NCBI RefSeq assembly: GCF_001483135.1
Contig: NZ_LNAL01000008.1
Span: 992,001-1,056,000, forward strand
Direction of reading: 5' to 3'
Source: Solirubrum puertoriconensis
GTDB lineage: Bacteria; Bacteroidota; Bacteroidia; Cytophagales; Hymenobacteraceae
Length of the DNA stretch: 64,000 nt
Position numbers and translations under genes: made by a program. The notes beneath the pieces are model-generated. The model made no database searches. It worked only from the letters and a program-made list of their open reading frames with translations, and was not told where the DNA came from. Shown here piece after piece: positions 3-64,000 of the stretch; the stretch's first letter is position 1, and each line of letters starts with the position of its first letter.

Positions 3-1715
3 ACACTTAGCTCGCGCGGCCCCGCGCACGACGGCCGCCTCAAGCCCGAAATGGTAGCCCTAGGCGAAGCCGGCACTTCCGACGCGGCCGCTGTGGTTTC
101 GGGCATTGCTGCATTGGTGCAGCATGCCTACCGCGAGCAGCACAACGGCCAGTTGCCCCCGGCTGCCCTTAGCAAGGCCGTGCTCCTCAACAGCGCCGAT
201 GATGTGGGCCGACCGGGGCCGGATTTCGAAGCAGGCTTTGGCCAAGCCGATGCCCTAGGTGCCGTGCAGACAATGCTCGATAAGCGCTTCGTGCAGGGCA
301 AGGTAGCGGCCGGTGCCAGCAGCAAGTTTGCCGTAACGGTGCCCGCCGGTGTGCGGCAGCTAAAGCTCACATTGGCTTGGGCCGATCCCGAAGCCGCTGC
401 CAATGCCAGCAAAGCCCTCGTCAACGACCTCGATGTGGAGCTGGTAGGGGCCAACGGCGTGCGGTGGCGCCCGTGGGTGCTTAGCTCATACCCGCACCTC
501 GACTCGCTGAAGCTGCCCGCCCGCCGCGGCGTGGATCGGCTAAACAACGTGGAGCAGATAACGGTAGGCGCGCCAGCTGCCGGTGCATACGAAGTGCGCG
601 TAAATGGCACTACCGTAGCAGCAGGCCCCGAGCAGGAATTTGCCGTAGCCTACGAGTTCGAAACCCAAGGCCTTACCTGGAGCAACCCCGTAGCGGGCAC
701 GGCCCTGAACGCTGGGCAGCAGCAACGCCTGCGCTGGCATTGGCAAGGTGCTGCTACCACGGGCACCCTTAGCTACCGCACAGCCGGCAGCAATACTTGG
801 GTACCCATCAGCAACGCCGTAGACCTAGGCGTGGGGCTATACGCCTGGACGGCGCCCACCGAAGCTGCAGTGGCGCAGTTCCGCTTCGAAGTAGGCAGCG
901 CTGTGTACCCATCGGCCACCGCGGCGGTTAGCCAAGCACCGCTCGTGCAAGTGGGCTACGCCTGCGACGACGAAGCCCTGCTTACCTGGGCACCAGTGCC
1001 GGGCGCGAGTGGCTACCAGGTGCTGCGCCTCGGCCTTACAGCGCTCGAGCCCGTAGCCACTATCGCCGACACTGCTTTGCTGCTAACGAATTCGCAACTA
1101 TTCTTCCGGCATTACACCGTTGTACCGGTGTTGGCCAATGGCAACCCAGGCGTACGCGCGCGTACCATCTCGCTGAACTCGAACTCGGCTTGTTACGTGC
1201 GCTCCTTTTTGCCACGCCAGCTCGTTACCGATGAAATTGAGTTCGATCTGATTCTGGGCAGCACCTACCGCTTGCGGGCAGTGCACCTGGAGCGCGAAAC
1301 TGCCGGCGGATTCCAGACGGTGCAAACCGTTACGCCGGGTGCGCAATCAACCATCGTGTTGCAGGATCAGCTGCCTACACCGGGGCTATACCGCTACCGG
1401 GCCCGCCTCGAAACGGTATCGGGCTCTATGTTATACACGCAGGTGGAGGACATTTACTACGCCCGCCCCGGCGACGTGATGCTGTTCCCCAACCCCGTGG
1501 TTGCGGGCAAAGCAGCCACACTAATTGAAGCCAATGGCCTTGCCATGCATTGGCAGCTATTCGATAACCTAGGGCAGCTCGTGCGCGAAGGCGACGCCCC
1601 CGAGGCCGCCGTGGGCGAATTTGACACCAGCAACCTGCGGGCAGGTACTTATTTCGTGCGCATCACGCCTGCCGGCGGCACAACCGTGGTACGCCGTTTG
1701 GTAGTATTGCGCTAA
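3..1715 (+). CDS. Subtilisin-like serine protease with T9SS sorting domain (5' end outside window)
   Basis: This is the C-terminal part of a secreted S8 (subtilase) peptidase; the reading frame is open from base 3, so the start lies before the window. The first residues read SSRGPAHDGRLKPE, then GTSDAAAVVSG, which matches the subtilase block holding the catalytic serine (usually GTSxAAPxVSG). The catalytic Asp and His would be upstream. A beta-rich region and a fibronectin-like segment follow. The last ~75 residues (from LFPNPVVAGK to RRLVVLR) form a type A T9SS sorting domain, so the protein is probably exported through the outer membrane and anchored or released there. The gene ends at a very strong shared terminator. 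The family call is firm; the substrate is unknown. Confidence 0.9.
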   Translation, partial: TLSSRGPAHDGRLKPEMVALGEAGTSDAAAVVSGIAALVQHAYREQHNGQLPPAALSKAVLLNSADDVGRPGPDFEAGFGQADALGAVQTMLDKRFVQGKVAAGASSKFAVTVPAGVRQLKLTLAWADPEAAANASKALVNDLDVELVGANGVRWRPWVLSSYPHLDSLKLPARRGVDRLNNVEQITVGAPAAGAYEVRVNGTTVAAGPEQEFAVAYEFETQGLTWSNPVAGTALNAGQQQRLRWHWQGAATTGTLSYRTAGSNTWVPISNAVDLGVGLYAWTAPTEAAVAQFRFEVGSAVYPSATAAVSQAPLVQVGYACDDEALLTWAPVPGASGYQVLRLGLTALEPVATIADTALLLTNSQLFFRHYTVVPVLANGNPGVRARTISLNSNSACYVRSFLPRQLVTDEIEFDLILGSTYRLRAVHLERETAGGFQTVQTVTPGAQSTIVLQDQLPTPGLYRYRARLETVSGSMLYTQVEDIYYARPGDVMLFPNPVVAGKAATLIEANGLAMHWQLFDNLGQLVREGDAPEAAVGEFDTSNLRAGTYFVRITPAGGTTVVRRLVVLR

Positions 1716-1789
1716 GCACGGCCTTGCGCCCAACAAAACGGCCCTGCCTCCGAGGAGGCAGGGCCGTTTTGTTGGGCGCAAGGCCGTGC
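1716..1789. terminator. Bidirectional terminator, perfect 36-bp stem
   Basis: Bases 1716-1751 are the exact reverse complement of 1754-1789, leaving a 2-base centre. It starts right after the protease stop codon and ends 3 bp before the stop of the convergent metallopeptidase gene, so it probably stops transcription from both sides. The stem is unusually long for an intrinsic terminator. Confidence 0.85.
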
Positions 1790-1792
1790 CGG

Positions 1793-2590
1793 TTAGTACA
1801 AGTAGTTCAGAGCAGTTTTATCGTTGTTATTAAAGTTGCGGTTTTGGCCCGAGCCGATGCAGGCGAGCATGAACGAGCCGGGGTCGGCCGTGGTGGGCGT
1901 GCCGGGGATGTGAATGGCGCCCACGGTGCTGGCGCCCTCGTTGGCCGTGGCGCCGCCGCAGCTGTAGGAGCGGTCCATGTAGTCGGTGTGGCGGAAGCCG
2001 ATGCAGTGGCCGATTTCGTGCGCCAGAATGGTGGCCAGGTAGCCAAGGGCTGGATTAGTGCCGATGGCTCGCGAATTCACTTTTACTTGGTTGTGCGGTT
2101 CGCCTGCCGATGTTGGGAAACCAGCCGAAGCCAAATACGAACCGGTGCCGCGCACAATAGCAATATCGGCGCCCGACGACACCCGCACGAAGGTGAGCTG
2201 CAGGTTCGCGGCGTTGTAGCGGGCAATTGCCTCATCGAGACCGGCTACGTAGGTGCTGGGCAGCTGGCTCGAGATGCTTACCCGGATGGTGCGCGGCAAG
2301 CCTTTCACGAGGTTGGTGGTGCGGTACTGCTCGGCGTTGCCCACGCGCAGCAACTGCGGTGCTACGGGATTCTGCAGCTCGGCGTCGGTCAACAAGATGT
2401 CGCCTTCAACCAAATAGCCACCGTCTACTTTTTGCGCGCCGGTAGCCGTGAAGCCCATTGCCCGGATCTGACCTAGGGTTTCTTCCGACACCTGGTCTTT
2501 CACTTGCACATCATCTTTCGAGCAGCTGGCAAACGAGCATAGTGCTACGGCAGCTACGGCTACAGGGGTAAACCATTTTGCGATTTTCAT
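1793..2590 (-). CDS. HEIGH-type zinc metallopeptidase lipoprotein, copy 1
   Basis: This 265-residue protein has a lipoprotein signal peptide ending FASC with the lipidated Cys at about residue 23. A conserved N-terminal block follows (VKDQVSEET, then IRAMGFTATGAQKVDGGYLVEGD). The catalytic segment near residue 191 reads HEIGHCIGFRH, a metzincin-like HExxHxxGxxH zinc site with a nearby Met (YMDRS). This fits the dual-action HEIGH metallo-peptidase family of Bacteroidota, probably anchored in the envelope or surface exposed. It is the first of three tandem paralogues on this strand, each with its own promoter region and terminator. The ATG at 2590 is placed directly before the signal peptide. 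The substrate is unknown. Confidence 0.9.
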   Translation of the reverse strand: MKIAKWFTPVAVAAVALCSFASCSKDDVQVKDQVSEETLGQIRAMGFTATGAQKVDGGYLVEGDILLTDAELQNPVAPQLLRVGNAEQYRTTNLVKGLPRTIRVSISSQLPSTYVAGLDEAIARYNAANLQLTFVRVSSGADIAIVRGTGSYLASAGFPTSAGEPHNQVKVNSRAIGTNPALGYLATILAHEIGHCIGFRHTDYMDRSYSCGGATANEGASTVGAIHIPGTPTTADPGSFMLACIGSGQNRNFNNNDKTALNYLY

Positions 2591-2741
2591 AGGATTTTGG
2601 TTTGGTTAGGTTGGATTTGAACAGGTCGATAAGCTGAACAGAAAGAATTAAATAATCAATAGCTAATTGTTGAAACATGTACGCCCGAGCTAGCGTACGC
2701 GCGTGCCCAATGGCCTGATATTGATACAGTAAGGGCCAAAA

Positions 2742-17413: not shown

Positions 17414-19477
17414 TTACTTACCCAATACCTTAAACTCGGTGCGGCGGTTGAGCGCCTGGCCTTGCTTAGTGGTATTGGGCGCCACGGGCTGCGTATCGCC
17501 GTAGCCGGCCGAGGTAAGGCGCGAAGCCGGTACACCTTTGCCGGTGAGGTAATCAACCACGGCTTTGGCGCGGCGCTGCGACAAATCCTGATTGTAAACC
17601 GCTTTGCCCACGTTGTCGGTGTGGCCTGAAATTTCGATGCGCAGCGAAGGGTATTCGGTGGTCATCAGCTGCACAATGCGCTCTAGTTCGGCGGTGCTTT
17701 CCTTGCGGAGGGTAGCTTTGTCGAAGTCGAAGAAGATGTTGTTGAGCACCACTTTGGCACCCACATCTAGCTTCTTCAGCGGAATGTCCTTTACTACTTC
17801 CGAGAAGGCCGCACCCGCGGGCAGGTCAAAGTTTTCGGAGTGGAACAGGTAACCTTCCTTCCGCACCACAATGCCGTAGTTCACGCCCGACGGCAGCGAC
17901 ACCAGGTAGCGGCCTGTGCTGGCATTGGAGCCGAAGGTGGCAATGTTCTGGTTCAGCGTATTATCAACCAGCTCGATGGTAGCATCAATTGGCTTCTTTG
18001 TGTCGGCATCGGTTACGGTACCTTTTAGGATGGTAACCTGCGCCGTAGCAATGGGCACGGCCGGGGCTAGCAGCGTTTGGCGCACGGGCGCTGCGCGCGA
18101 GGCCAGCAGCGGTTCTTCGGCCGATAGCACCGGGGGCTTTTCGGGACCTAGGAAGGTAATCATGTAAATATCGCGCGAGCCTTGCGAGTCGTCGCGCGAG
18201 GAGGCGTAGTAGCCGTGGCGGCCCGAGGCCGACAACACGAAGAACACGTCGTCGTCGGGGGTGTTGATGGGCCAGCCTAGGTTCTCGGGCTTGCTCCACT
18301 GCCCGTTCTGCCACACCGACTTGAAAGTGTCGAAGCCGCCCATGGAGTTGTGGCCCTGCGACGAGAAGTAAATCGTTTTGCCGTCGGGGTGCACGAAGAT
18401 GCCGTCCTCGTCGTAGGGCGTGTTGATAACCGACCCTAGGTTCTCGGCCTTGCCTTTGCCCTCGATGTCGATGCGCCAGATGTCGTGGCCGCCCCGGTTG
18501 CCCTCGCCACCGCCGTTGCTCACGAAGTACAGCATGCGGCCGTTAGGAGCGTAGGCCGCTGAGGGCTCGTGCGACTGACCACCATTTACGCGCCGACCTA
18601 GGGTTTGCGGCTTGCGCCACGTAGTACCCTGCAACTCTGCCTGGTGAATGTCGCCGCCGCTATCCTCAACGTAGGTAATGAGACGTTGGCCATCAGGCGC
18701 CAGGGCCACCACGGCATCGTGCCCTTTGGTGTTTACCGTTTCGCCTAGGTTGCGGGCTGGCTGCCACTTGCCATCAGCGCCTTTCACCGACTGCCAAATG
18801 TCTTCGAAGTAGCCGCCCGAGTCGGGGTCTTTGTCGTCGCCCACGCCGCCTTCGCGCCGCGAGGTAAACAGCAGCACCGATTCGTCGGCCGTGATTACCG
18901 GGCCGTAATCGGCAAACGGCGAGTTTACGGTAGCGCCTACGTTATCGATAAATGCCCGGGTGGCATTTTTCTGCAGCACCAAGCCCGATTCGCATTCCCG
19001 GATCTTCTTCTGAATGTCGTTCTGCAGGGCCGTGCTGTTCTTGGTGCCAGGCGCCGGCATAGCCGCCTTGTACTCGGCAATGGCTTCCTGCCAACGGGCA
19101 TTCAGGTGCAGGCCGCGGCCAATCATGTACCGAATGCGAGCATCCACTACCGCATCGAGCTTGTAGGCTTTTTGCAGGTAGGGCAGCGCTTTTGATTTGT
19201 ACGGCGAGTTGAGGTAGCAGTGCCCGATCTTGAAATTGAGCAGGGCGTTGTTGGGGTTGAGCTCTTGGGCAGCCAAGTAGTGCGGCAGGGCCTGCTCGAA
19301 GCGCGGTGGATCCGACTGGTACCACTCATCGCCTTGCTTCAGATCTTTCAGGGCGGTTTTCAGGCCGTCTTTGTTGTCCGAAAACTGATCCTTGGTAAAC
19401 TCTACGCTTTGTGCCGATGCCGAAAACGCCAGCATCAGGCCGGCCGTCAGGCCTAGGGTATAACGAAGCTTATGCAT
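17414..19477 (-). CDS. OmpA-family protein with TPR, PD40 and carboxypeptidase-like domains (PorE-like)
   Basis: A 687-residue envelope protein with signal peptide (LGLTAGLMLAFSASAQ). It has an N-terminal TPR region (about 30-160), PD40/WD-like propeller repeats (about 180-430, each around S-x-D-G-x-x-L-Y-F-x-S), a carboxypeptidase-regulatory-like domain (about 480-560: TVTDADTKKPIDATIEL) and a C-terminal OmpA domain that binds peptidoglycan (FFDFDKATLRKESTAELE, GHTDNVG, NRRTEF). This order is that of PorE, which links the T9SS trans-envelope complex to the cell wall. Many paralogues exist, so the exact role is an inference. It follows the TPR gene by 24 bp. Confidence 0.87.
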   Translation of the reverse strand: MHKLRYTLGLTAGLMLAFSASAQSVEFTKDQFSDNKDGLKTALKDLKQGDEWYQSDPPRFEQALPHYLAAQELNPNNALLNFKIGHCYLNSPYKSKALPYLQKAYKLDAVVDARIRYMIGRGLHLNARWQEAIAEYKAAMPAPGTKNSTALQNDIQKKIRECESGLVLQKNATRAFIDNVGATVNSPFADYGPVITADESVLLFTSRREGGVGDDKDPDSGGYFEDIWQSVKGADGKWQPARNLGETVNTKGHDAVVALAPDGQRLITYVEDSGGDIHQAELQGTTWRKPQTLGRRVNGGQSHEPSAAYAPNGRMLYFVSNGGGEGNRGGHDIWRIDIEGKGKAENLGSVINTPYDEDGIFVHPDGKTIYFSSQGHNSMGGFDTFKSVWQNGQWSKPENLGWPINTPDDDVFFVLSASGRHGYYASSRDDSQGSRDIYMITFLGPEKPPVLSAEEPLLASRAAPVRQTLLAPAVPIATAQVTILKGTVTDADTKKPIDATIELVDNTLNQNIATFGSNASTGRYLVSLPSGVNYGIVVRKEGYLFHSENFDLPAGAAFSEVVKDIPLKKLDVGAKVVLNNIFFDFDKATLRKESTAELERIVQLMTTEYPSLRIEISGHTDNVGKAVYNQDLSQRRAKAVVDYLTGKGVPASRLTSAGYGDTQPVAPNTTKQGQALNRRTEFKVLGK

Positions 19478-19501
19478 TGCTAGGTAGGGTAGAGGGCCTC
19501 G

Positions 19502-20557
19502 TTATTCGCAGCCCGAGGCAGCTGCGTAGCTGGTTCCGGATTCAAGCCCAAGCTCGGCCGCACGGCGCCAATCCTGGCAGGCACCGCCCGCATCGCGCAG
19601 CATTTCGCGCGCGTGGCCGCGGTTCAGGTAGGCCTCGGCGTACTGCGGGTTAATTTTCAGGGCCGCCGAAGCATCGTCGGCAGCGGCTTTGTAGTTCTCC
19701 TGCTTCAGGTAAGCGGCCGCGCGGTTGTTTAGCGCCAGAGCGTAATCGGGCTTCAGTTTGAGGGCGTGCGAAAGATCCTCGATGGCGCCTTTGTAATCCT
19801 TGGCTTCGTAGCGGGCGGTGCCGCGGCCTAGGTAGCCCACGGGGTCGTCGGAGCGGCGGCGCAGGTAGTCGTTGTAGTCGGCCAGGGCACCTTGCAGGTC
19901 CTTATTGCGGCGTTTGGCGGCCGCTCGGTTCAGCAGCGCCACGTGCAAATCGGGGTTGTGGCGCAGGGCCTCGGTGTAATCGTTAATGGCCGCGGCCATG
20001 TTGCCCAACTGGCGCTGGGTGCTGGCCCGGTCGTGCCAAGCGTAGGCGTACTTAGAGTCGACCTTGATAGCCTGGGTGAAGTCACCTAGGGCCGCTTGGT
20101 AGTCGCCTTTTTCGAAGCGCAGGGCGCCGCGGTCGTACCAGGCTACGGCGTAATCGGGTTTCAGCTCGGTTACCTTGCCGTAGTCTTTCTCCGCTTCGGC
20201 AGCTTGGCCTTGTGCCTGCTCGGCTTGGGCGCGGCCGTACCACGCCGTAAAGCTGTTCGGGTCGAGGCGAATGGCTTCGTTGTAATCCTGCACGGCCGGC
20301 GCATACTGCTTCAGCTCGTAGCGGGTAGCCGCACGGTTGTAGTAGGCCGGTGTAAAGTCCTTCTTCACCGACAGGGCTTTGTCGAAGTCCTGCAGAGCGG
20401 CCTGGTAACTCTTGTTATTGAATTTCGCGACGCCGCTATTGTAATATTTCTCGGCGAGCTGAGCAGGCGGTAGCGTAGAGGCCCGTACGGTATCGGTTTG
20501 AGCTTGGGCTGTAAACCCAGCTGCAAGCCCTCCAATTAAGAATAAAAATTGTTTCAT
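19502..20557 (-). CDS. Secreted tetratricopeptide-repeat protein
   Basis: A 351-residue protein with a signal peptide (FLFLIGGLAAGFTAQA) and about eight TPR units of 34 residues, each with the pattern Y-x-x-A-x-x-D-x-x-x-A-x-x-x-x-P-x-x-x-x-x-x-x-x-R (for example AVAWYDRGALRFEKGDYQAAL). TPRs mediate protein binding. It is co-transcribed with the PorE-like gene 24 bp downstream and may be its periplasmic partner, which is inferred from the operon only. Confidence 0.82.
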   Translation of the reverse strand: MKQFLFLIGGLAAGFTAQAQTDTVRASTLPPAQLAEKYYNSGVAKFNNKSYQAALQDFDKALSVKKDFTPAYYNRAATRYELKQYAPAVQDYNEAIRLDPNSFTAWYGRAQAEQAQGQAAEAEKDYGKVTELKPDYAVAWYDRGALRFEKGDYQAALGDFTQAIKVDSKYAYAWHDRASTQRQLGNMAAAINDYTEALRHNPDLHVALLNRAAAKRRNKDLQGALADYNDYLRRRSDDPVGYLGRGTARYEAKDYKGAIEDLSHALKLKPDYALALNNRAAAYLKQENYKAAADDASAALKINPQYAEAYLNRGHAREMLRDAGGACQDWRRAAELGLESGTSYAAASGCE

Positions 20558-20631
20558 CGGCGAGGAAGCTCCTTAGTGAATGGGCTATGGCTCGTCGAAA
20601 GTTATTGCATTTTCCCGTAGCAGCCGCAGAA

Positions 20632-20934
20632 TCAGACTATTTCTTTACCCAAGGCTGCTTGGGCCAGCGCCTGCCATTCTTCGGCTTCGGTGCCTGCAAA
20701 ACCAGTTCTGCCGGCCCTCCGGTACCAGTGTCCAGCGTTGCCTAGGTCGCCTTCGCGGCGGTGTAAATAAGCATGCAGCCAACAGAATAGCGGGTCGGCC
20801 TCGTCGCGCTGGGCAATGTCGTGGGCGCCGCTCCATTGGCCGTTGCGTTCCAGCCACAAAGCGCGCAGCAACAGGGGTAGGGTAGCGGGCGGCTGCTTGG
20901 CACCTAGGGTGGCTTCAAACTCCTGAAAAGTCAT
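20632..20934 (-). CDS. Small conserved-type hypothetical protein
   Basis: A 100-residue cytosolic protein without signal peptide, rich in Ala, Leu and Trp. It has helical, TPR/Sel1-like character (LLLRALWLERNGQWSGAHDIAQ, then DPLFCWLHAYLHRREGDLGNAGHWYRRAG). Similar ~100-residue proteins occur in several phyla without assigned function. It lies 75 bp upstream of the TPR gene on the same strand and may share its transcript. Confidence 0.68.
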   Translation of the reverse strand: MTFQEFEATLGAKQPPATLPLLLRALWLERNGQWSGAHDIAQRDEADPLFCWLHAYLHRREGDLGNAGHWYRRAGRTGFAGTEAEEWQALAQAALGKEIV

Positions 20935-20998
20935 AAGAGCACGAAGTTGGCGACTCGTGAAAACTTCTGGGTAGGTAGTATTGGTTATACACGCGGCC

Positions 20999-21025
20999 TT
21001 GCCAGCTGCAGTTTGCGTAGTTTTG
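20999..21025 (+). promoter_or_regulatory. Possible promoter of the bacilliredoxin gene
   Basis: TAGTTTTG at 21018-21025 matches TAnnTTTG exactly, 63 bp before the ATG. The nearest TTG (20999) is 16 bp upstream, shorter than the usual spacing. Confidence 0.4.
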
Positions 21026-21087
21026 CGCGGTGCAGCGGCTAAGTGGCCGGCGCATATTCTTTTCGTACCCCCAAGCCCTTGTCAATC

Positions 21088-21510
21088 ATGGCAATGTACC
21101 CCGAATACATGGTGGCTCCTATCCGCCAAGACCTCGTAGAGGCCGGTTTTGAGCAACTCATGACGCCCGAAGAAGTAGACTCAGCCCTCAGCACCCAAAC
21201 CGGCACCGTACTGGTGGCCGTAAACTCGGTGTGCGGCTGTGCGGCTGCCAAGGCTCGCCCCGCCCTCAAAATGGCGCTTTCGAGCTCCGATAAAAAACCC
21301 GCAAAGCTGGTAACGGTATTTGCCGGCATGGAAACCGAAGCCGTAGCCAAAGTGCGCGAGCACATGCTGCCGTACCCGCCCAGCAGCCCCAGCATTGCCC
21401 TGTTCAAAGACGGTGAGCTGGTACACATGATCGAGCGTTACCACATCGAAGGCAACGACCTAATGCGCATTGTGGACAACCTCCAGGGCGCTTTCGCCGA
21501 ATACTGCTAG
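21088..21510 (+). CDS. BrxA/BrxB-family bacilliredoxin
   Basis: A 140-residue thioredoxin-fold protein of the YphP/YqiW family. The motif SVCGCAAAKARP holds the Cys-Gly-Cys active site, used in Firmicutes to remove bacillithiol from proteins. Several Bacteroidota also make bacillithiol or related thiols, so a de-bacillithiolation role is plausible. The start is ATG 21088 (MAMYPEYMVAPIRQDL); a longer frame from 21043 adds a non-homologous leader. The protein ends with a further Cys. Confidence 0.88.
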   Translation: MAMYPEYMVAPIRQDLVEAGFEQLMTPEEVDSALSTQTGTVLVAVNSVCGCAAAKARPALKMALSSSDKKPAKLVTVFAGMETEAVAKVREHMLPYPPSSPSIALFKDGELVHMIERYHIEGNDLMRIVDNLQGAFAEYC

Positions 21511-21532
21511 TAGTAAAAGTTTTCATGCATCA

Positions 21533-21566
21533 AAAAAGCCCCGCTGCACCTGCCGCGGGGCTTTTT
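21533..21566. terminator. Terminator between bacilliredoxin and reductase genes
   Basis: A 12-bp stem AAAAAGCCCCGC / GCGGGGCTTTTT with a 10-base loop, placed between convergent genes. Confidence 0.85.
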
Positions 21567-21568
21567 GC

Positions 21569-22105
21569 TTACCTAGGCGGGTGGGCCTGCAAGCGGTAAT
21601 CGAGCATCAGCACGCCGTCGTCGTAGCGCGTTACGTTTTCCAGCAGCAGGTTTTGGGGCGGTGGTTGGTTCAGCAGCTTGATGCCTTTGCCCAGGAAAAC
21701 GGGTATCACGGCCAACATCAGGCGGTCGATCAGCCCGGCGGCGTTGAAGGAATCGATCAGCGCGCCGCCGCCTACCAGCCACGTGCGGCCTTCGGGTAAT
21801 TGCTGCGCCAACTGCTCCACCGAATCGGGCCACAGCCAGATGCGCGGATCGGCGGAGGTGGGCAGCGTGCGTTTGGAGCACACATAGGTATCGAGGTTTT
21901 TGTAGGGCCACTCGGGAAGGTTGAAGCCCAGCACCTGCTCGTAAGTGCGCGAGCCCATCACTACCGCTTTCAGGCCTTTCACAAATTCGGCGTAGCCGTA
22001 ATCCTGCCCCGAGTTTTCGTAGGGCTTGAGGAAATCCACGTTGCCGTCTTCGGCGGCGATGTAGCCGTCGAGACTGGCGGCGATGTACAGTACAACTTCA
22101 GGCAT
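21569..22105 (-). CDS. Dihydrofolate reductase/RibD C-terminal family protein
   Basis: A 178-residue cytosolic reductase-fold protein. The N-terminal VVLYIAASLDGYIA and LKAVVMGSRTYEQV, and later TWLVGGGALIDSF, are hallmarks of the DHFR-like RibD C-terminal domain that binds NADPH. Stand-alone members are of unknown substrate and are not expected to replace FolA. ATG 22105 is chosen because the protein then begins MPEVVLYIAAS, as in relatives. Confidence 0.86.
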   Translation of the reverse strand: MPEVVLYIAASLDGYIAAEDGNVDFLKPYENSGQDYGYAEFVKGLKAVVMGSRTYEQVLGFNLPEWPYKNLDTYVCSKRTLPTSADPRIWLWPDSVEQLAQQLPEGRTWLVGGGALIDSFNAAGLIDRLMLAVIPVFLGKGIKLLNQPPPQNLLLENVTRYDDGVLMLDYRLQAHPPR

Positions 22106-22142
22106 AGCTGAATATAGCAACCGCGCCCTAGGTGCAAAAACA

Positions 22143-22172
22143 AAACGCCCGCAACCAGAGCTGCGGGCGTTT
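22143..22172 (-). terminator. Terminator of recQ
   Basis: An 11-bp perfect stem AAACGCCCGCA / TGCGGGCGTTT downstream of the recQ stop. The minus-strand continuation is T-rich. Confidence 0.75.
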
Positions 22173-22213
22173 GGGTTCAGATTAGCTGATTGGCCTGAAC
22201 TAAGAAGGTGGAT

Positions 22214-24445: not shown

Positions 24446-24525
24446 CGTTCTTCCTCGCTGAGCAAAGGGGTAAACCGGGCGAAAACTACGTTCGGGCTTT
24501 ACTGCTCAATCTAGACAAATTTAGA

Positions 24526-25506: not shown

Positions 25507-25595
25507 CCCAGTAGTTTTTCGGCTGAAGAAAAATCGGATATTAGGCGCTTAGGTGCCGCACGGTTTTTCTTCTCTCTTCCCAACCAAACCGCACA

Positions 25596-26687: not shown

Positions 26688-26696
26688 CTCTTGTCG

Positions 26697-26758
26697 ACAG
26701 CTACGCAAACAAAGAAGCCGGGCTCAGTAGAGCCCGGCTTCTTTGTTTGCGTAGCTGT
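26697..26758. terminator. Bidirectional terminator, perfect 29-bp stem
   Basis: Bases 26697-26725 are the exact reverse complement of 26730-26758, with a 4-base loop AGTA. It lies between the convergent guanylyltransferase and rlmB genes, 3 bp before the rlmB stop, like the palindrome at 1716. Confidence 0.87.
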
Positions 26759-26761
26759 GGT

Positions 26762-33996: not shown

Positions 33997-36120
<2,124 letters not shown>

Positions 36121-36566: not shown

Positions 36567-36740
36567 AAGCACTGAGTGAGGTTGAGTATGTCTTCAGCAT
36601 AGTTACTGTTGCCCAACACTCTTGTTGAACACCGGTTTTCTGGGGCTTAGCTCCTGAAAAAAGGTTGTAGGTACAGCGAAATGGATTCAAACATGGGTGA
36701 TTTGTGACTAAACTTAGCAGTTGGGCGATGCCCACAAACG

Positions 36741-40734: not shown

Positions 40735-40798
40735 GGTGGCAAGAATTAAGGTGTGCGAGAACCTTGAGTAAGACAAACATACCAACCTAGGCACGCCT

Positions 40799-40829
40799 AA
40801 GTAAAGGAAGAAACTTGCTTGTCTGTGAC
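40799..40829 (+). repeat. 31-nt intergenic element, copy B
   Basis: Starts AAGTAAAGGAAGAA and ends TGTGAC, matching copy A at 36536 in length and orientation. It lies just beyond the start side of the ABC operon. Confidence 0.5.
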
Positions 40830-40997
40830 TATGAATTACGGAGCAACTCTATAATGAAATATGGTTTAAATTTCTGGTTTTTATAGCTTAAGTCAATCCT
40901 GATCGGCGAAGCTTGAAAAAATACTGGCCAAAATGTGACATTCAGGTTGCTAGGAATTACAACTTGCACAATGCAAATTTGACTTACCTATCCGGGT

Positions 40998-41028
40998 TCA
41001 AAAAGGAAGAAACTTCAGCCTTTGTGAC
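40998..41028 (+). repeat. 31-nt intergenic element, copy C
   Basis: Has AAAGGAAGAAACTT and ends TGTGAC, with the same spacing as the other two copies. It ends 64 bp before the ATG of the gene at 41093 and runs directly into a CCTAGG. Confidence 0.5.
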
Positions 41029-41092
41029 CTAGGACGGCCTCATACGATCCTAGGCAGGGCGTGGCCTAGGTGCCCTATTGCAAGCTTTACAC

Positions 41093-44591: not shown

Positions 44592-44803
44592 GGGAGCGGA
44601 AGCTGGCGGCCCTAGGTGCAATGGGTTGCCTCGGAATAGCTGAGTCAAAGGTGTCGAGGTAAGAGCTAAAATCAGTGGATGCAAGGCTCACATAAGCATG
44701 TGGTTCAGGGCCATTAGCATGCCTCAGCAATAAAATTTACCTCCGAGCGTGTGGAAAAAGCAGGGCGCCGGCATCGATAAGCTGTAATTACCTTGCTTTG
44801 CTC

Positions 44804-47800
44804 ATGCGTTTCCTCCTGCTCATCCTGGCCGCTTGGCTGTTGTTGATGGTAGTACCCTCTAATGCATCGGCCCCACCTGCGGGCGGGCCGTACGCTGCGC
44901 AGTGGAAAAAAATTGATGCGCTGCTGCAAAAAGACCAAACAGAAGCCGCCCAGAAGTTGGTGCTCGGTATATATCAGAAAGCCCGCGCCGCTAACCAAAC
45001 GGCCGATTACGTGCGCGCTCTGGTATACCGCCTGCACTTGCTGGAGCGGCGCGAAGAAGATGCCGATGCGAAAGGAATTCGGCTGCTCGAAGAAGACCTA
45101 GGGAAAGCCGCTTTTCCGGCGCGGCCGGTGCTGCACAGCCTGTTGGCCGAGCAGTACCACCAGTACCTGCGCCAAAACCGCTACCGCCTCTACGACCGCA
45201 CCCAGGTAGCTGCCGCAGCCGATTCCCTAGGTGCCGACGATCTGCAAACCTGGGATGCCGCCCGCTTAGCCAGCCAAGTAGTGCGCCACTACCGCGCCTC
45301 CGTCGAAACCGATGCCGCCCGTCAGCAGCAAACCACGCTGCGCAACTTAGGCCAGCTGGCCACGCCCGCCGATGCGGCTGGCCAGCAACTGCGCCCCACG
45401 CTCTACGACCTGCTCGCCCACCGCGCCATCGAGGCTCTGAACGACGACGAACTGTACCTCACGCGCCCGGCCGAGCAGTTCCGCTTTACCGAAACGCGGC
45501 TGCTTGCCTCCAACGAGGAATTTGCCCAACTCTCCCTAGGTGCCCCCGCGGCCGACTCGCTCAATGGGCCACTGCATGCTTTGCGCCTGTGGCAACAACT
45601 CACGGCTTTCCGGCTACGCGATGCCCGAAACCAAGCTGCCCTGGCCGATGTGGAGCGCCTGCGCCTCGCCTTTGTGCACGAGCATGCCGCCTTCGCCAAC
45701 AAAACGGCCGCTTACATCGCTGCCCTGCGCCGCGCCCAGCAGCGCTACCAAGCCTTACCCGCTTGGGCTGATTTTCAGGCCGAGCTTGCAGAGCAGGCTC
45801 AAAGCCAGAAGCGCTACGCCGAGGCCATGGAGCTAGCCCGGGCCGCCGTGCAGCGCTTCCCCAAATCGGTAGGAGCCGCGCGGGCACAAGGCATCATAAA
45901 CGAGCTGGAACGGCCCGAGCTACAGGTGCGTACGTCTGAGGTAGAGCTGCCCAACGAGGCCATGCTGCTGAGCGTGCGCTACCGCAACCTGAAGCAAGTG
46001 TACGGTTTTGCCTGGAAGCTGCCCGCCGCGGCCATACTGCGCGAACAGCTCGGCCAACGCAACACCGAAATCCAGAAAGCCTACGCCAAGCGCCTAGGGG
46101 CCAAGTCCGTTGCTACCTGGACGATGGCCCTGCCCGGCTCCACCGATTACCGCGCGCACCGCGCCGAGGTGGCCGGGCCCAAGCTGCCGGCCGGGCATTA
46201 CCTCATGCTGGTGAGCACCGCCGCCGAGCAGCCCGGCAAGGAGCGGGAGAATGTAGCCACCGCCTACGCTTTTGTATCGGTGAGCGAGTTGGGTGAGGTG
46301 CACCGCGCCGCCCCCACCAGCGGTACCGATATCTGGACGCTCAACCGCCGCACTGGCCAGCCGCTAGCGGGCGTGGGCGTGCAGCTGTGGTACCAGGATT
46401 ACACCAACGGCAAAGAGCGGCACCGCTCCGGCCAGCTCCTGCAAAGCAACGCCGAGGGCTTTCTGAACGTGCCGCCCGATGATAACCGCCGCGCCTATCA
46501 GCAAGCCCTGTTGCTGCGCCGCGGTGCCGATACCTTGGTGGTACAAACCAACATAGGCAACAACCGCATGTTGCCTAACCGCAACTCCGAGCAAGAGCAA
46601 CGCCCACGGGCCTTCCTCTACACCGACCGCGCCATTTACCGCCCCGGCCAAACGGTGTACTTCAAAGGCATTGTGGCCCAAAACCAAAACGGCCGCAGCC
46701 AAGTGCTGAAGAACACGCAGGTGCAGGTGCGCTTGCTCGATGTGAATGGCCAGCCCGTGCAGGAATTTACCTTCACTACCTCCGATTACGGCAGCTTCAA
46801 CGGCTCGGTAGTGCTGCCTACAGGCCTGCTCAACGGGCAAATGCAGCTGCACGTGCGCACCAAGTTCTTCAGCGAAGAGCAGTACCCAGGGCAGGCGTTT
46901 ATTTCGGTCGAAGACTACAAGCGCCCCACGTTCTTCGTTGCGCTCGATCCGGTAAAAGGCACGCCCAAGCTCGGCGATACGCTATCGGTGCGCGGCACGG
47001 CCACGGCCTACGCCGGCCAAGCCATTGATGGCGCCACGGTGCAATACCGCGTGGTACGCCGCACGGTGTGGCCGATGCTTGGGTGGGCCGAGCTGGACTT
47101 CGGCTTCGGCAGCGCCTTGGGCATCCGCCGCCCGTACTACCCGGGCCGCGGCGGCGAGCAGCAAATTGCCACCGGTACTGCCACCACCGATGCGCAGGGC
47201 CGTTTCCGGGTAAGCTTCACGGCCACCCCGCCCGACGAAGCCGCCAACGACGACACGCCCGACGAGGACGAAGACGATGAAGACGGCTACCGCCCGCCCG
47301 GCCCGTGGCGCCCCAGCTACGTGTTTGAGGTAACCGCTGATGTAACCGACCCCAACGGCGAAACGCGCTCCGCCGAGCGCGGCGTTACCCTAGGCGGGCA
47401 GCCGCTCAACTTGGCCCTGAGCGGCCCTAAGTTGGTTAATCAGCAGCAAGTTGAGGAGGCATTTGAACTGCGCAGCAAGAATGCTACCGGCGAGGCCGTG
47501 CCCGCTACCGGCACCCTGCGCCTTTACCGCCTCACGCCGCCGGCGCGCATGCTGCGCCCGCGCCTGTGGCAGCGCCCCGACCAGCCCGGCCTCAGTCGCG
47601 AACAGCACCAGCAGCTCTTCCCGCTCGATGCCTGGTTAAATGAAGACGACCCCGACAAGTGGCCGCGCACCGTGGTAGGCGAGTGGCGCTTCGATACCGG
47701 TCAGCGCACGCAGCTGCCCGAGGTGGCCCGCGCCCTAGGTGCCCAAACGCCGGGCGCTTACCTGCTGGAGGCCAGCACCCTTGCCGGCACCGATACGGCC

Positions 47801-50800
47801 CGTACTCGTCTGGGCTTCACGCTCTACAACCCTGCCGCGCCGCAGCTACCGTTGCCCGTGCCGCAGTGGCTTACGGCCCTGCAGGATACCGTAGCCCCGG
47901 GCCAAGCCGTGCAAGTGCTCGTCGGCTCGGGTTTTGAGGCGGTGCACGCACGGTTGGAGGCAGAAAGCCAAGGCCAGCTAGTGCGCGCCGAGTGGCTGCC
48001 GCTGCGCCGCGAGCAACGGCTCATCAGCCTGCCCACTACGCCCGCCAACGCCGGGCCCATGCACGTGCGGCTGATGTTTGTACACGCCGGACGTTTCTAT
48101 CAGCAGGAAGCTACGGTACAAGTAGCCGAGCCCGAGCGGCCGTTGCAGCTTGCCATTAGCACCTTCCGCGATAAGCTGCAGCCTGGCCAAAAGGAAACCT
48201 GGCGCCTCACCATTCGCAACAGCCAAAACCAGCCCGCCGCGGCCGAGCTGCTGGCATCGCTCTACGATCAGTCGCTCGATTACTTCCGGCCACACGCTTT
48301 CGCGAAGCCCGAGCTGCCGCAGCCGTATTTCGGGCAGCGGTTTGGCTGGAGCGGTGTGTTTGGCGCAGAAAGTTGGGAGTTGTTATTTTCCAGGTTTAGG
48401 GGAAAAGCTTTAGGGCTGCAGTATTACATCTATCCGGCGGTTAGAATGAATATGCCTCAATGGCAACAAACCAGAGGCATAAACTCCAGTCAATTGTATG
48501 ACTTAGAAGATCTGGGCGATGAAGGCAATGCCAGCTTACAAGAAGTGGTAGTTACTGGTGCAGGCCGTGGTGCAAACGTTAGGGTCCGTGGCATCAGCAC
48601 CATGGCGGCTGCACCCGTCGCTGCCGCCACAGCAGATGCTGCAGTTGTTGAGCAGAAAGCTTATAAGATTAGCGGTGCTGTGTCCGAAGTCAAAAGAACT
48701 CCGCAGGACCTCGCTACCGTACCCGTCCGCTCCGACTTCCGCGAAACCGCTTTGTGGGCACCCGCTGTGCGCACCAACGACAAAGGCGAAGTGGTGCTGG
48801 AATTTCAGATGCCCGAGGCCGTGACCCGCTGGCAACTGCTCACGCTGGCGCACACGCCCGATTTGCAAACCGGCATGCTGGCGCGGCAGCTTGTCACGCA
48901 AAAAGAGCTGATGGTAACGCCCAACGCGCCGCGCTTCTTCCGCGAGGGCGACCAGCTGCGCCTCACGGCCAAAATCAGTAACCTCAGCGGCAAAGCCCTA
49001 GGTGGCACGGCTAAACTCATCTTGTTGGATGCCCGCACAAATCAGCCCATCGACAAGCAACTGCTGCGCGGCAAAGCCCAGGAGAAGTTTAAGGTTGCGG
49101 CCAACCAGAGCACCACAGTAGGGTGGGAGCTGAGCATTCCGGCTGGCCTCGAGGCCGTAACCTACCGCGTGGTGGCGCAGGCCAAAAACTACTCCGATGG
49201 CGAGGAAAACACCCTACCGGTGCTGCTCAATCGCCTGCTCGTAACAGAGGCGCTGCCGCTTACCGTGCGCGGCAACTCGGTGCGCGAGTTTGAGCTGCGC
49301 AAGCTGACAAGCACCACCTCGGCCACGCGCCAAAACCAGAGCCTCACGCTGGAGCTAACCAGCAACCCGGCCTGGTACGCTGTGCAGAGCTTGCCCTACT
49401 TGATGGAGTACCCCTACGAGTGCTCCGAGCAGGTATTCTCGCGCCTCTACGCCAATACGCTTGCCGCGCGCATTGTGCAGCAAAATCCGCGCATCCGACC
49501 GGTGCTGGAGGAGTGGAAACGCGCTGCTGCCAGCGGCGACCCGAAGGCGCTGCGCTCCAAACTCGAGCAAAACCAAGAGCTGAAAGCCTTGCTGCTGCAG
49601 GAAACGCCGTGGGTGCGCGAAGGACAGTCGGACACGGAGCGCATGCGCCGCTTGGCCGAGTTGTTCGACGAGCCCCGCCTGCAAGCCGAAATACAGCGCG
49701 CTGCCCAAAAGCTGCAAGAGCTGCAAAGCCCCAGCGGTGCCTTCCCATGGTTTAAGCAAATGCCCGACAACCGCTACATCACGCAGGTGGTGGTGGCGGG
49801 CTTCGGCCGCCTGCGCCGCCTAGGTGCTTTTGATGCCCTGCAGGATGCCCGCACCGCCGATATCCTCCGCCGCACCGTAGCCTACCTCGACCGCGAACTA
49901 GCCGACGACTACGCCCAGCTGCGCCGGCAGAAAGGCGTGAAGCTCGCCGACGACCACCTAGCCGACGCCACGTTGCAGGCGCTCTATGCCCGCTCGTTTT
50001 GGGCGGCCGAACTGCCCGTGCCCGCCCAGGCAAAACCGGCTTTCGAATACTACCGCGAACAAACCGCCAAGTACTGGCCCAAGCGCAACCGCTACCTGCA
50101 AGGCTTTGCCGCCGTGGTGCTGCACCGCAACGGCCAAGCCAAGCCCGCCCGCGAGGTGGTAGAGGCGCTGCGCCAAAACGCCCTGCGCTCCGACGACCTA
50201 GGTATGTACTGGAAGGATGTGCAGCCGGGTTTCTACTGGCAGCAGGCGCCCACCGAAACCCAGGCGCAGCTGATCGAAGCGTTCAGCGAAGTAGCCTCGG
50301 AAGATCAGCAGTCGGTAGAGGAAATGAAGCTGTGGCTGCTGGCTCACAAGCGCACCCACAACTGGGAAAGCACCCGCGCTACCGCCGATGCCTGCTATGC
50401 TTTGTTGCTGCAAGGCGGGCGCAACTGGCTCGAGCCCGCGCAGCCGTTGCAGGTTTCCCTAGGTGCACAAGCCATCAACACCAGCCAAGGGGCCGAGGCC
50501 GGCACCGGCTACCTCAAGCGCAGCTACCCGGCTGCCGAGGTAAAGCCCGCTCTGGGCAAAGTGCGCGTGCAGAAAACCGACGCCGGCGTGGCTTGGGGTG
50601 CGCTGTACTGGCAGTACTTCGAACAGCTTGATAAGATTACGCAAGCCGACAAAGCTCCCATTACGCTCACGCGCCAGCTCTTCCGCGAAACACCGAGCAG
50701 CAACGGCCCCGTGCTTGCGCCCATGCAGGCCGGTACGCCGCTGCGGGTAGGCGAGGTGCTGGTGGTGCGCCTGGTGCTGAAAACCGACCGCGAGCTGGAG

Positions 50801-51082
50801 TTTGTGCACCTAAAGGACACCCGCGCCGCCGGCCTCGAACTGATTGGCCAAACCTCGGGCTACCGCTACCAGCAAGGCCTCGGCTACTACGAAAGCCCGC
50901 GCGATGCCGCCACCAACTTCTTTATGGATGTGCTGCCCCGTGGCACGCACGTGTTCGAGTACCGTTTGCGCGCGGCCCAGGCCGGCGACTTCTCCTCGGG
51001 CATAAGCCAGGTGCAGTGCCTCTACGCGCCGGAGTTTACCAGCCATTCGGCTGGGCAGCGCTTGCGCATTGGGGCCCAGTAA
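44804..51082 (+). CDS. Bacterial alpha-2-macroglobulin family protein with EVVVTG insert
   Basis: A 2092-residue envelope protein with a signal peptide (LLLILAAWLLLMVVPSNASA) and a helical N-terminal region. The MG2 domain is near residue 600 (FLYTDRAIYRPGQTVYFKG) and the A2M domain near 1318 (ALWAPAVRTNDKGEVVLEF). The terpenoid-like domain carries PYECSEQ at 1538-1543, the position of the thioester Cys-x-x-Gln that traps attacking proteases. So a protease-trapping defence in the periplasm or on the surface is likely. Residues ~1190-1300 are an extra, lower-GC insert with LQEVVVTGAGRG and NVRVRG, like a TonB-receptor plug signature. Translation starts at ATG 44804. No penicillin-binding protein gene (pbpC) is adjacent, unlike in E. 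coli. Confidence 0.92.
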   Translation: MRFLLLILAAWLLLMVVPSNASAPPAGGPYAAQWKKIDALLQKDQTEAAQKLVLGIYQKARAANQTADYVRALVYRLHLLERREEDADAKGIRLLEEDLGKAAFPARPVLHSLLAEQYHQYLRQNRYRLYDRTQVAAAADSLGADDLQTWDAARLASQVVRHYRASVETDAARQQQTTLRNLGQLATPADAAGQQLRPTLYDLLAHRAIEALNDDELYLTRPAEQFRFTETRLLASNEEFAQLSLGAPAADSLNGPLHALRLWQQLTAFRLRDARNQAALADVERLRLAFVHEHAAFANKTAAYIAALRRAQQRYQALPAWADFQAELAEQAQSQKRYAEAMELARAAVQRFPKSVGAARAQGIINELERPELQVRTSEVELPNEAMLLSVRYRNLKQVYGFAWKLPAAAILREQLGQRNTEIQKAYAKRLGAKSVATWTMALPGSTDYRAHRAEVAGPKLPAGHYLMLVSTAAEQPGKERENVATAYAFVSVSELGEVHRAAPTSGTDIWTLNRRTGQPLAGVGVQLWYQDYTNGKERHRSGQLLQSNAEGFLNVPPDDNRRAYQQALLLRRGADTLVVQTNIGNNRMLPNRNSEQEQRPRAFLYTDRAIYRPGQTVYFKGIVAQNQNGRSQVLKNTQVQVRLLDVNGQPVQEFTFTTSDYGSFNGSVVLPTGLLNGQMQLHVRTKFFSEEQYPGQAFISVEDYKRPTFFVALDPVKGTPKLGDTLSVRGTATAYAGQAIDGATVQYRVVRRTVWPMLGWAELDFGFGSALGIRRPYYPGRGGEQQIATGTATTDAQGRFRVSFTATPPDEAANDDTPDEDEDDEDGYRPPGPWRPSYVFEVTADVTDPNGETRSAERGVTLGGQPLNLALSGPKLVNQQQVEEAFELRSKNATGEAVPATGTLRLYRLTPPARMLRPRLWQRPDQPGLSREQHQQLFPLDAWLNEDDPDKWPRTVVGEWRFDTGQRTQLPEVARALGAQTPGAYLLEASTLAGTDTARTRLGFTLYNPAAPQLPLPVPQWLTALQDTVAPGQAVQVLVGSGFEAVHARLEAESQGQLVRAEWLPLRREQRLISLPTTPANAGPMHVRLMFVHAGRFYQQEATVQVAEPERPLQLAISTFRDKLQPGQKETWRLTIRNSQNQPAAAELLASLYDQSLDYFRPHAFAKPELPQPYFGQRFGWSGVFGAESWELLFSRFRGKALGLQYYIYPAVRMNMPQWQQTRGINSSQLYDLEDLGDEGNASLQEVVVTGAGRGANVRVRGISTMAAAPVAAATADAAVVEQKAYKISGAVSEVKRTPQDLATVPVRSDFRETALWAPAVRTNDKGEVVLEFQMPEAVTRWQLLTLAHTPDLQTGMLARQLVTQKELMVTPNAPRFFREGDQLRLTAKISNLSGKALGGTAKLILLDARTNQPIDKQLLRGKAQEKFKVAANQSTTVGWELSIPAGLEAVTYRVVAQAKNYSDGEENTLPVLLNRLLVTEALPLTVRGNSVREFELRKLTSTTSATRQNQSLTLELTSNPAWYAVQSLPYLMEYPYECSEQVFSRLYANTLAARIVQQNPRIRPVLEEWKRAAASGDPKALRSKLEQNQELKALLLQETPWVREGQSDTERMRRLAELFDEPRLQAEIQRAAQKLQELQSPSGAFPWFKQMPDNRYITQVVVAGFGRLRRLGAFDALQDARTADILRRTVAYLDRELADDYAQLRRQKGVKLADDHLADATLQALYARSFWAAELPVPAQAKPAFEYYREQTAKYWPKRNRYLQGFAAVVLHRNGQAKPAREVVEALRQNALRSDDLGMYWKDVQPGFYWQQAPTETQAQLIEAFSEVASEDQQSVEEMKLWLLAHKRTHNWESTRATADACYALLLQGGRNWLEPAQPLQVSLGAQAINTSQGAEAGTGYLKRSYPAAEVKPALGKVRVQKTDAGVAWGALYWQYFEQLDKITQADKAPITLTRQLFRETPSSNGPVLAPMQAGTPLRVGEVLVVRLVLKTDRELEFVHLKDTRAAGLELIGQTSGYRYQQGLGYYESPRDAATNFFMDVLPRGTHVFEYRLRAAQAGDFSSGISQVQCLYAPEFTSHSAGQRLRIGAQ

Positions 51083-57744: not shown

Positions 57745-57818
57745 TGGTCACGTAGGGAGTCGAACCCCAAACCTCCTGGTTCGTAGCCAGGTGCTCTATC
57801 CAGTTGAGCTACGTGACC
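57745..57818 (-). tRNA. tRNA-Arg (anticodon ACG)
   Basis: A 74-nt tRNA without encoded CCA. The acceptor stem is GGTCACG / CGTGACC with discriminator A. The anticodon arm is CCTGG-CTACGAA-CCAGG with anticodon ACG (first base probably edited to inosine), reading CGN codons. The T arm with TTCGA is intact. It is preceded by a consensus promoter. Confidence 0.93.
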
Positions 57819-61815: not shown

Positions 61816-61823
61816 GCTTTACG

Positions 61824-63385: not shown

Positions 63386-63593
63386 GTCGGCTTTCGGGCC
63401 GAACATATGGCCATGGCAAGGTAGCTTTTTTAGCGTCAGTAAGTCCCAAATAGCACGTGGAATAATGCACCTGGCAAGTGCCTGGGTACAGGCGGGCCCA
63501 CGTACCTAGGGCTGATTTATAGGGTGGTATGTGGTGGTCGATGGGTGCCGAACGTGCGTTAGGTTTTCAGCCGGCCAGAACGGATTCACCCTA

Positions 63594-63601
63594 TATATTT
63601 G
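63594..63601 (+). promoter_or_regulatory. -7 box of the aldolase gene
   Basis: TATATTTG matches TAnnTTTG exactly, 46 bp before the ATG at 63647. Confidence 0.55.
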
Positions 63602-63646
63602 TGGCATCGTTCTATTTCCCATTCCCACCTTATCACCCCATTTTCA

Positions 63647-64000
63647 ATGGAAACGAGCACCCTTCAGGTAAGCGCCGAAGTTGACGCGCTGCTCCAGCAC
63701 GAGTGTCAGACCATTACCAAGGACCAGATTCACCAGCCTGGCCCCGATTTCATCGACCGCTGCTTTCTGCAGTCCAACCGCTCGCCGCAGGTACTGCGCA
63801 GCCTAGGTCAGCTTTACAACTCGGGCCGCCTAGCAGGTACCGGTTACATGAGCATCCTGCCCGTTGACCAAGGTATTGAGCACACCGCCGGTGCTTCGTT
63901 TGGCCCGAACCCGATGTATTTCGACCCCGAGAACATCATCAAGCTAGCTATTGAAGGTGGCTGCAACGCGGTGGCTACTACCTTCGGCACGTTTGGTACG
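63647..64000 (+). CDS. Class I fructose-bisphosphate aldolase (3' end outside window)
   Basis: The first 118 residues of a DhnA/archaeal-type class I aldolase that splits fructose-1,6-bisphosphate in glycolysis. Starting [17 protein letters not shown], it carries [20 protein letters not shown] and [23 protein letters not shown], hallmarks of this family. The Schiff-base lysine would lie past the window edge. Confidence 0.85.

What the first reader, a model, noticed from the sequence alone, without database searches (positions are those of the whole stretch)
59..63807. CCTAGG is a HIP1-like highly iterated palindrome
Seen: about 104 copies in 64 kb versus about 20 expected at roughly 60% GC. 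CTAG is usually depleted in bacteria, so the excess is striking. Copies are spread over both strands' genes and intergenic DNA, often CCTAGGT. In coding DNA they are nearly all in the Leu-Gly frame. The closest known analogue is cyanobacterial HIP1 (GCGATCGC). Inference: it may be a methylation target, a chromosome-organisation or repair signal, or the product of biased mismatch repair.
Basis: partly seen in the sequence, partly recalled or inferred. Interest (0 to 1): 0.85.

Follow-up and report, generated by a model that had tools for sequence, protein, structure and literature searches.

The report
Evenly spaced, species-specific genome word
This Hymenobacter-like bacterium carries one short DNA word about every 770 letters of its genome, evenly spaced and spelled differently in related species, which resembles the self-recognition tags of naturally transforming bacteria although the usual machinery for reading such tags was not found.

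Summary
In detail: exactly 104 CCTAGG in the window (shuffles 15.6 ± 3.9), 6212 in 4.80 Mb. Codon usage is not the cause: synonymous-codon shuffling of the genes in 356 kb gives 36 ± 6 against 343, and intergenic density exceeds coding density about twofold. 'HIP1-like palindrome' is half right: in this clade the word is asymmetric, G-[C/G]-CCTAGG-T-G. Three of 8 congeners have 5300-6200 copies, five have 123-249. Related clades spell it differently round a CTAG/TAG core: CCCTAGGG, ACCTAGGT, TGGCCTA, GGGGTAGG. In G000 spacing is the most even of 176 hexamers, and opposite orientations substitute for each other. No methyltransferase family of five searched is shared by the three genomes with this word; Vsr and a type IV pilus ATPase do not account for it. 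Best reading: dialects of a density-limited self-recognition word, working like uptake sequences (DUS/USS), with an unknown reader. Anatomy is well supported; function is inferred.

The parts
59..63807 (.). Array of 104 CCTAGG words over the whole window, one per 615 bp on average
   Evidence: searches list every copy; one search gives coding, frame and flank counts
2472..2477 (+). Example of a word that contains the TAG stop codon of an ORF (1724-2476); in the pooled stretches of G000, G005 and G006 58 of 720 called genes end this way
40786..41070 (.). Four words (40786, 41028, 41049, 41065) in a gap between listed ORFs of at least 150 aa: intergenic copies, three of them in a tight cluster
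33997..36120 (+). ftsH gene, used as anchor for the species tree and for orthologous stretches; carries words at 34407, 34683 and 35556

Best explanation
SHOWN: the genome carries a short asymmetric word, G[C/G]CCTAGGTG with core CCTAGG, about once per 770 bp, in coding and non-coding DNA and in both orientations about equally. It arises by point changes and prevails over codon preference. In this clade sites are spaced more evenly than chance, and opposite orientations count as equivalent, so whatever rewards a site asks for about one per kilobase and does not care which way it points. Related clades have their own spelling round a CTAG/TAG core, and sister species may have no such word. INFERRED: this is a family of self-recognition words that works like the DNA uptake sequences (DUS/USS) of Neisseriaceae and Pasteurellaceae. 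A sequence-specific DNA receptor or nuclease acts on DNA fragments according to whether they carry the word.
For: Genome-wide excess in 3 of 8 congeners. Intergenic excess, 2.75 against 1.13 per kb in 356 kb. Asymmetric flank. Dialects in separate FtsH clades: G000/G005/G006 CCCTAGGT; G125/G140 ACCTAGG[G/C]; G109 CCCTAGGG; G070 ACCTAGGT; G158 A[C/G]CTAG[C/G]T; G080/G082/G172/G164 TGGCCTA; also G135 and G083 (not in the tree) GGGGTAGG. Drive on the full word: Leu CTG to CTA in context C_CTN_GG 7 of 37 branch-sites against 151 of 3993 elsewhere (P 0.0005); CTA lost in 41 of 308 against 36 of 87 (P 5e-8). CTA is 64% of 798 Leu codons in that context, 5-9% in the other three contexts, and 2-7% in the same context in 4 low genomes. 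Gly third base after CCTA follows the dialect: T 54% of 513 (16% elsewhere) in the G000 group, G 73% of 56 (19%) in G109, T 88% of 59 (21%) in G070; G082, C 13 of 14 (65%), is too few to tell. Variance/mean of 2-kb counts 0.58 in G000, lowest of 176 hexamers (itself included), median 1.19; a class-preserving null gives about 1.05, with 0, 1 and 0 of 1000 runs as low in G000, G005, G006. Evenness also in G070 0.56, G140 0.72, G080 0.70, G082 0.80, G172 0.66, G109 0.81. Opposite orientations repel: r -0.18 at 2 kb, -0.29 at 4 kb; with the TGGCCTA word -0.20 and -0.34 (P 0.015, 0.004). No overall strand bias, 372:339. A plasmid-like contig has 2 words where 16 are expected. Published uptake sequences: even spacing, non-coding excess, no orientation bias (PMC1939737, passages); dialects round a fixed 3-base core (PMC3630211, abstract and passages).
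Against: The ATPase family of type IV pili and type II secretion (PF00437) is over the cut-off in 0 of 25 genomes searched, with one genome (G130) showing weak matches, so the known uptake-word machinery is missing; competence genes such as comEC and dprA were not searched. Evenness is not general: G158 0.96, G164 1.07 and G125 1.69 (an 18-kb word-free block) show none, and in the G000 group the repulsion of orientations is weak at 0.5-1 kb (r -0.06). PMC1939737 also says that uptake sequences are less evenly spaced than a compaction role would need. Single-mismatch variants of the core are not in excess (2798 observed, 3268 expected), unlike HIP1 and an uptake sequence in PMC1939737. Two strain-specific blocks of 7 and 9 kb carry as many words as the core, whereas USS are reported under-represented in new segments (PMC7811141, passages). 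Aligned intergenic words are lost about as fast as other hexamers (0.25 against 0.24), and in the three-genome comparison losses exceed gains (ratio 0.34, second lowest of 397 hexamers), so the drive may be past its peak or saturated. Words near stop codons do prefer one orientation, 92:34.
Confidence: 0.4

Rival explanations
1. HIP-type word: an orphan DNA methyltransferase modifies the word and methyl-directed mismatch repair enriches it to about one per kb (Elhai's model).
For: Density fits the model's set point of about one per 1000 nt, and a per-kb repair signal could give even spacing.
Against: G000 has no match to PF00145, PF02086, PF07669 or PF02384, and one PF01555 match on a 12.5-kb contig; G005 has no PF01555, PF00145 or PF02086. 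Large methyltransferase-domain proteins of G005 and G006 differ visibly in a stretch of the C-terminal half that I take for the target-recognition part (read by eye). Words of three groups are not palindromes. Methyltransferase families outside these five were not searched, and methylation itself cannot be seen here.
Confidence: 0.15
2. Chi-like signal: the word regulates a recombination or degradation nuclease and marks self DNA at double-strand ends.
For: Asymmetric, over-represented, lineage-specific words; the rare CTAG core gives low background.
Against: Chi is read in one direction (my recall), so each orientation should be spaced on its own; instead the two orientations substitute for each other, and overall strand bias is absent. 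Recombination nuclease genes were not examined.
Confidence: 0.18
3. Binding site of a chromosome-organising protein that needs a site about every kilobase.
For: Even spacing and orientation indifference in the G000 group and the TGGCCTA clade.
Against: Five of 8 congeners lack the excess, and spelling differs between close species such as G070 and G158, which is unlike a core chromosome protein.
Confidence: 0.12
4. Site-by-site biased mismatch repair (Vsr-like) converts near-matches to the word, with no function.
For: Near-matches of the core are slightly below expectation and single positions are strongly biased toward the word.
Against: Does not predict long-range even spacing; the Vsr family is found in 5 of 25 genomes and not in G000 or G005.
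Confidence: 0.07
5. Composition or codon-usage artefact.
For: 67 of 72 coding copies in the window share one frame.
Against: Synonymous-codon shuffle 35.8 against 343; intergenic excess; CTA is rare outside the word.
Confidence: 0.01

Closest known systems
DNA uptake sequences (DUS) of Neisseriaceae, with dialects
   Same: Asymmetric words in high copy; dialects by clade round a short invariant core; some relatives with none (PMC3630211, passages); no orientation bias and excess in non-coding DNA (PMC1939737, passages)
   Different: About 8 bp; sharp, with no excess of one-mismatch core variants; no type IV pilus ATPase found; uptake untested; these bacteria belong to Bacteroidota
HIP1 and alternate HIPs of cyanobacteria
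   Same: Density, and replacement by other words in some relatives (PMC4390886, sections read)
   Different: Asymmetric in several clades; no shared methyltransferase found; spacing regularity measured here is not mentioned there (term search of its text)
USS of Pasteurellaceae
   Same: Spacing near 1 kb, origin by point mutation (PMC7811141, passages), orientation indifference
   Different: No consensus beyond about two flanking bases; no pilus ATPase found; as many words in two strain-specific blocks as in the core
Chi sites
   Same: Asymmetric octamer in excess
   Different: No strand bias in the stretches seen, orientations interchangeable, about six times denser than E. coli Chi (1008 in 4.64 Mb in the table of PMC1939737)

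Membership tests
HIP (highly iterated palindrome) | Palindromic word | tested here: not met
   G000: 432 of 513 sites have the A flank on one side only, 31 on both, 119 expected; TGGCCTA and GGGGTAGG are not palindromes. The six-base core is a palindrome, and the octamers of G109 and G070 are
HIP (highly iterated palindrome) | Cognate DNA methyltransferase present | tested here: inconclusive
   None of five families is common to G000, G005 and G006; other families and methylation itself were not tested
HIP (highly iterated palindrome) | Density of about 500-2500 per Mb | tested here: met
   1293 per Mb
DUS/USS uptake sequences | Over-represented asymmetric word about once per kb, excess in non-coding DNA, no orientation bias | tested here: met
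DUS/USS uptake sequences | Even spacing along the chromosome | tested here: met
   G000 group and six other genomes below 1; not in G158, G164, G125
DUS/USS uptake sequences | Type IV pilus based uptake machinery | tested here: not met
   PF00437: 0 of 25 genomes over the cut-off
DUS/USS uptake sequences | Word increases DNA uptake or transformation | not testable with these tools
   needs an experiment
Chi | Direction-dependent action, replication-strand bias | tested here: not met
   372:339 overall; opposite orientations repel each other. Only local stretches of the chromosome were examined, and the position of origin and terminus is unknown
Vsr-type very short patch repair | Vsr endonuclease in the genome | tested here: not met
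   no match in G000 or G005

The most novel reading that the evidence does not exclude
A further, independent kind of genome self-marking: in Hymenobacteraceae a pilus-independent reader recognises a short word with a CTAG/TAG core, changes spelling quickly between species, can be gained or lost whole, and rewrites about 6000 sites under kilobase-scale density control, acting as a species barrier to DNA exchange or as a self-mark for a defence nuclease.
Probability: 0.45. Interest if true: 0.92.

Novelty: new variant of a known kind. Interest (0 to 1): 0.82.

Why it matters
Only two bacterial families are known to me (recall) to carry genome-wide uptake words, and the function of HIP1 is still open. 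Here is a family with gain or loss and re-spelling of such words between related species, without pilus ATPases and without a shared methyltransferase in the families searched.

Tried and rejected
Codon usage, composition and Markov artefact: rejected. Exact palindrome: rejected for this clade by the flank analysis. Replication-direction signal: no bias in the stretches seen. Methyltransferase of five families, or Vsr: not shared. Type IV pilus uptake: ATPase not found. Purely site-autonomous drive: spacing too regular. I first read the gain/loss ratio as decay; the codon-context rates show gain still raised, so decay or saturation is undecided. Among Leu contexts, the CTA share falls from 0.72 (next word 200-400 bp away) to 0.44 (under 50 bp); a logistic fit finds an effect below 150 bp (-0.45, interval -0.69 to -0.17), none at 150-1000 bp and a weak one at 1000-1500 bp, so the long-range evenness is not explained by Leu-codon choice alone. 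In one search the variance ratios of G109 and G070 were inflated because palindromes were counted twice; one search corrects them. The FtsH scan of genome contigs was cut at 80 loci, with one Hymenobacter and one Pontibacter. Of 73 named Bacteroidota loci scored, three had a top octamer above z 9: L063, and L133 and L107, whose words proved to be local repeats. Literature: searches listed no report of this word in Hymenobacteraceae; in PMC1939737 CCTAGG appears once, as part of GCCTAGGC, which the table gives as absent from E. coli. Two of 29 genomes (G171, G147) were left out of the FtsH tree because their ftsH match came in pieces. Dialects were read from 436 kb of G000, 80 kb of each of 15 genomes, nineteen 20-kb and one 5.4-kb stretch and four 20-kb stretches (a fifth of 1.6 kb was skipped), so words in other genomes, and weak words, cannot be excluded. 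G076 (high) was not sampled for its dialect.
Full report
WHAT WAS CHECKED. The window (G000:C8:992001-1056000 of a 4.80-Mb genome) holds exactly 104 CCTAGG, against 15.6 ± 3.9 in dinucleotide shuffles and 21 by third-order Markov. The genome holds 6212, the word read backwards 136. T9SS sorting domains and FtsH (best named loci Hymenobacter amundsenii 81% and Pontibacter fetidus 74%) place it in or near Hymenobacteraceae; the genome itself is unnamed. Gene calls below come from my own script, not a standard gene finder.

NOT CODON USAGE. In 356 kb of G000 coding density is 1.13 per kb (344 sites) and intergenic density 2.75 per kb (143 sites in segments over 20 bp; 145 before that filter). Shuffling synonymous codons among these genes gives 35.8 ± 5.7 words where 343 are seen. 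CTA makes up 64% of 798 Leu codons standing after C and before GG in the three high genomes, against 5-9% in the other contexts; in four low genomes the same context has 2-7%. In pooled stretches of the three high genomes, 58 of 310 TAG stop codons (720 genes) lie inside the word, and there is a second peak of words starting 4-8 bases after the first base of the stop codon.

THE WORD IS ASYMMETRIC. Of 513 sites, 432 have A (or T on the other side) on one side only, 31 on both, 50 on neither; 119 'both' would be expected for independent flanks. CCCTAGGT/ACCTAGGG makes up 236 of 513. Oriented logos give G[C/G]CCTAGGTG with little beyond about two flanking bases. Overall strand bias is absent, 372:339; just past stop codons the forward form prevails, 92:34.

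DISTRIBUTION AND DIALECTS. Of 8 species held in the genus, 3 have 5325-6212 copies and 5 have 123-249. Of 204 family genomes, 9 have over 5000, 4 have 1209-2331 and the other 191 under 1000 (my count of its table). The FtsH tree (27 of 29 genomes searched, plus Pontibacter) separates G000/G005/G006, G070/G076/G158, G109/G125/G140 and G080/G082/G164/G172, with word-poor genomes between them (15 of 25 inner branches starred, so deep order is unsure). Spellings: CCCTAGGT; ACCTAGGT (G070) and A[C/G]CTAG[C/G]T (G158); CCCTAGGG (G109) and ACCTAGG[G/C] (G125, G140); TGGCCTA, followed by G or C in G082. G135 and G083 carry GGGGTAGG. The low genomes sampled with 80 kb (G001, G003, G004, G130) show no comparable word. 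Of 20 stretches only G135 did, and of 4 scored only G083. Among 73 named Bacteroidota loci the Pontibacter fetidus locus stands out by a scattered word, AACTATAG; two others with high scores are local repeats.

DRIVE. In a 202-kb three-way alignment (pairwise identity 0.87-0.88) 135 words are shared by G000, G005 and G006, 113 by two, 94 are in one only. At Leu codons with the rest of the word in place, CTG becomes CTA in 7 of 37 branch-sites against 151 of 3993 elsewhere (P 0.0005), and CTA is lost in 41 of 308 against 36 of 87 (P 5e-8) (branch-sites are not fully independent). Against the low relative G003 the commonest counterparts of a word are CCCAGG and CCGAGG, one change away. Against my reading: on a star-tree estimate losses exceed gains (0.34, second lowest of 397 hexamers), and aligned intergenic words are lost as fast as other hexamers, 0.25 against 0.24 (coding 0.22 against 0.28).

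SPACING. In 325 kb of G000 the variance/mean of counts is 0.58 in 2-kb and 0.42 in 10-kb bins; the 2-kb value is the lowest of 176 hexamers of 350-700 copies (itself included; median 1.19), and so is its share of short gaps. I left out the last 31 kb, a low-GC stretch with few words. A null that keeps the numbers in Leu-Gly pairs, at gene ends, in other coding and in intergenic DNA gives about 1.05 at 2 kb; 0, 1 and 0 of 1000 runs are as low in G000, G005 and G006 (the three stretches are largely orthologous, so not independent). Other genomes, 80 kb each: below 1 in G070, G140, G109, G080, G082, G172 (0.56-0.81), but not in G158 (0.96), G164 (1.07) or G125 (1.69, with one 18-kb word-free block). 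Counts of the two orientations are negatively correlated, -0.18 at 2 kb and -0.29 at 4 kb, weakly at 0.5-1 kb (-0.06); the asymmetric TGGCCTA word of another clade gives -0.20 and -0.34, with -0.09 (P 0.07) at 1 kb. The reward for a word therefore seems to depend on whether another is near, whichever way it points.

MACHINERY NOT FOUND. G000 has no match to PF00145, PF02086, PF07669, PF02384 or Vsr PF03852. Its one methyltransferase match, PF01555, lies on a 12.5-kb contig; of the 8 kb compared, at best 16% aligns to a Hymenobacter plasmid, with replication and relaxase genes annotated there. G005, with the same word, has no PF01555. PF00437, the ATPase family of type IV pili and type II secretion, is over the cut-off in 0 of 25 genomes.

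INTERPRETATION. Regular spacing with interchangeable orientation argues against a process acting on each site in isolation and against direction-dependent signals. It fits a function read once per DNA fragment of about a kilobase. Similar traits are reported for uptake sequences: even spacing, non-coding excess, no orientation bias (PMC1939737, passages), spacing of about 1000 bp and spread by uptake plus recombination (PMC7811141, passages), and dialects round an invariant core that act as species barriers (PMC3630211, abstract and passages). I therefore hold that the word works like an uptake or self-recognition sequence, at 0.4; it fails the membership test on pilus machinery, and uptake itself is untested. 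The HIP model (PMC4390886: abstract and sections 2.3, 2.5, 3.4 part 1 and 3.5 read) fits the density but needs a methyltransferase that was not found. What seems new is a word family with re-spelled dialects in Bacteroidota; no mention was found in the searches listed under Tried and rejected.

Noticed in passing
L063 (Pontibacter fetidus), whole locus: AACTATA occurs 62 times in 22 kb (AACTATAG 36, expected 4), spread over the locus: a possible AT-rich counterpart of the word in another genus.
   Followed up: partly
L268 (G135) and L330 (G083): GGGGTAGG/CCTACCCC 21 and 19 times in 20 kb: another dialect, in genomes with little CCTAGG.
   Followed up: partly
L212-L215 (G125:C7:960001-1040000), bases 18491-36837 of the joined stretch: An 18-kb block without a single word between word-rich flanks: perhaps recently acquired DNA.
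   Followed up: no
family table: GGATCC (the reversed control) has 0-20 copies in many genomes of genus g5 and 100-300 in many others, which suggests avoidance of a restriction site.
   Followed up: no
window, all: GAGCTC is strongly depleted (2, expected 19) and GATC is about half of expected (75, expected 153).
   Followed up: no
L045 (G005), L061 (G006): Homologous large proteins with a weak methyltransferase-domain match are nearly identical except for a stretch in the C-terminal half, as if a target-recognition part had been swapped (MmeI-like is my recall).
   Followed up: partly
G000:C8:1222001-1256000 (L205, L206): Lower-GC stretch with SusC/SusD-like outer-membrane genes has about half the word density.
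   Followed up: partly
window 44798-51082, 28910-31936, 22214-24445, 57745-57818: Alpha-2-macroglobulin family protein, TMEM260-like O-mannosyltransferase, RecQ helicase and a tRNA.
   Followed up: no
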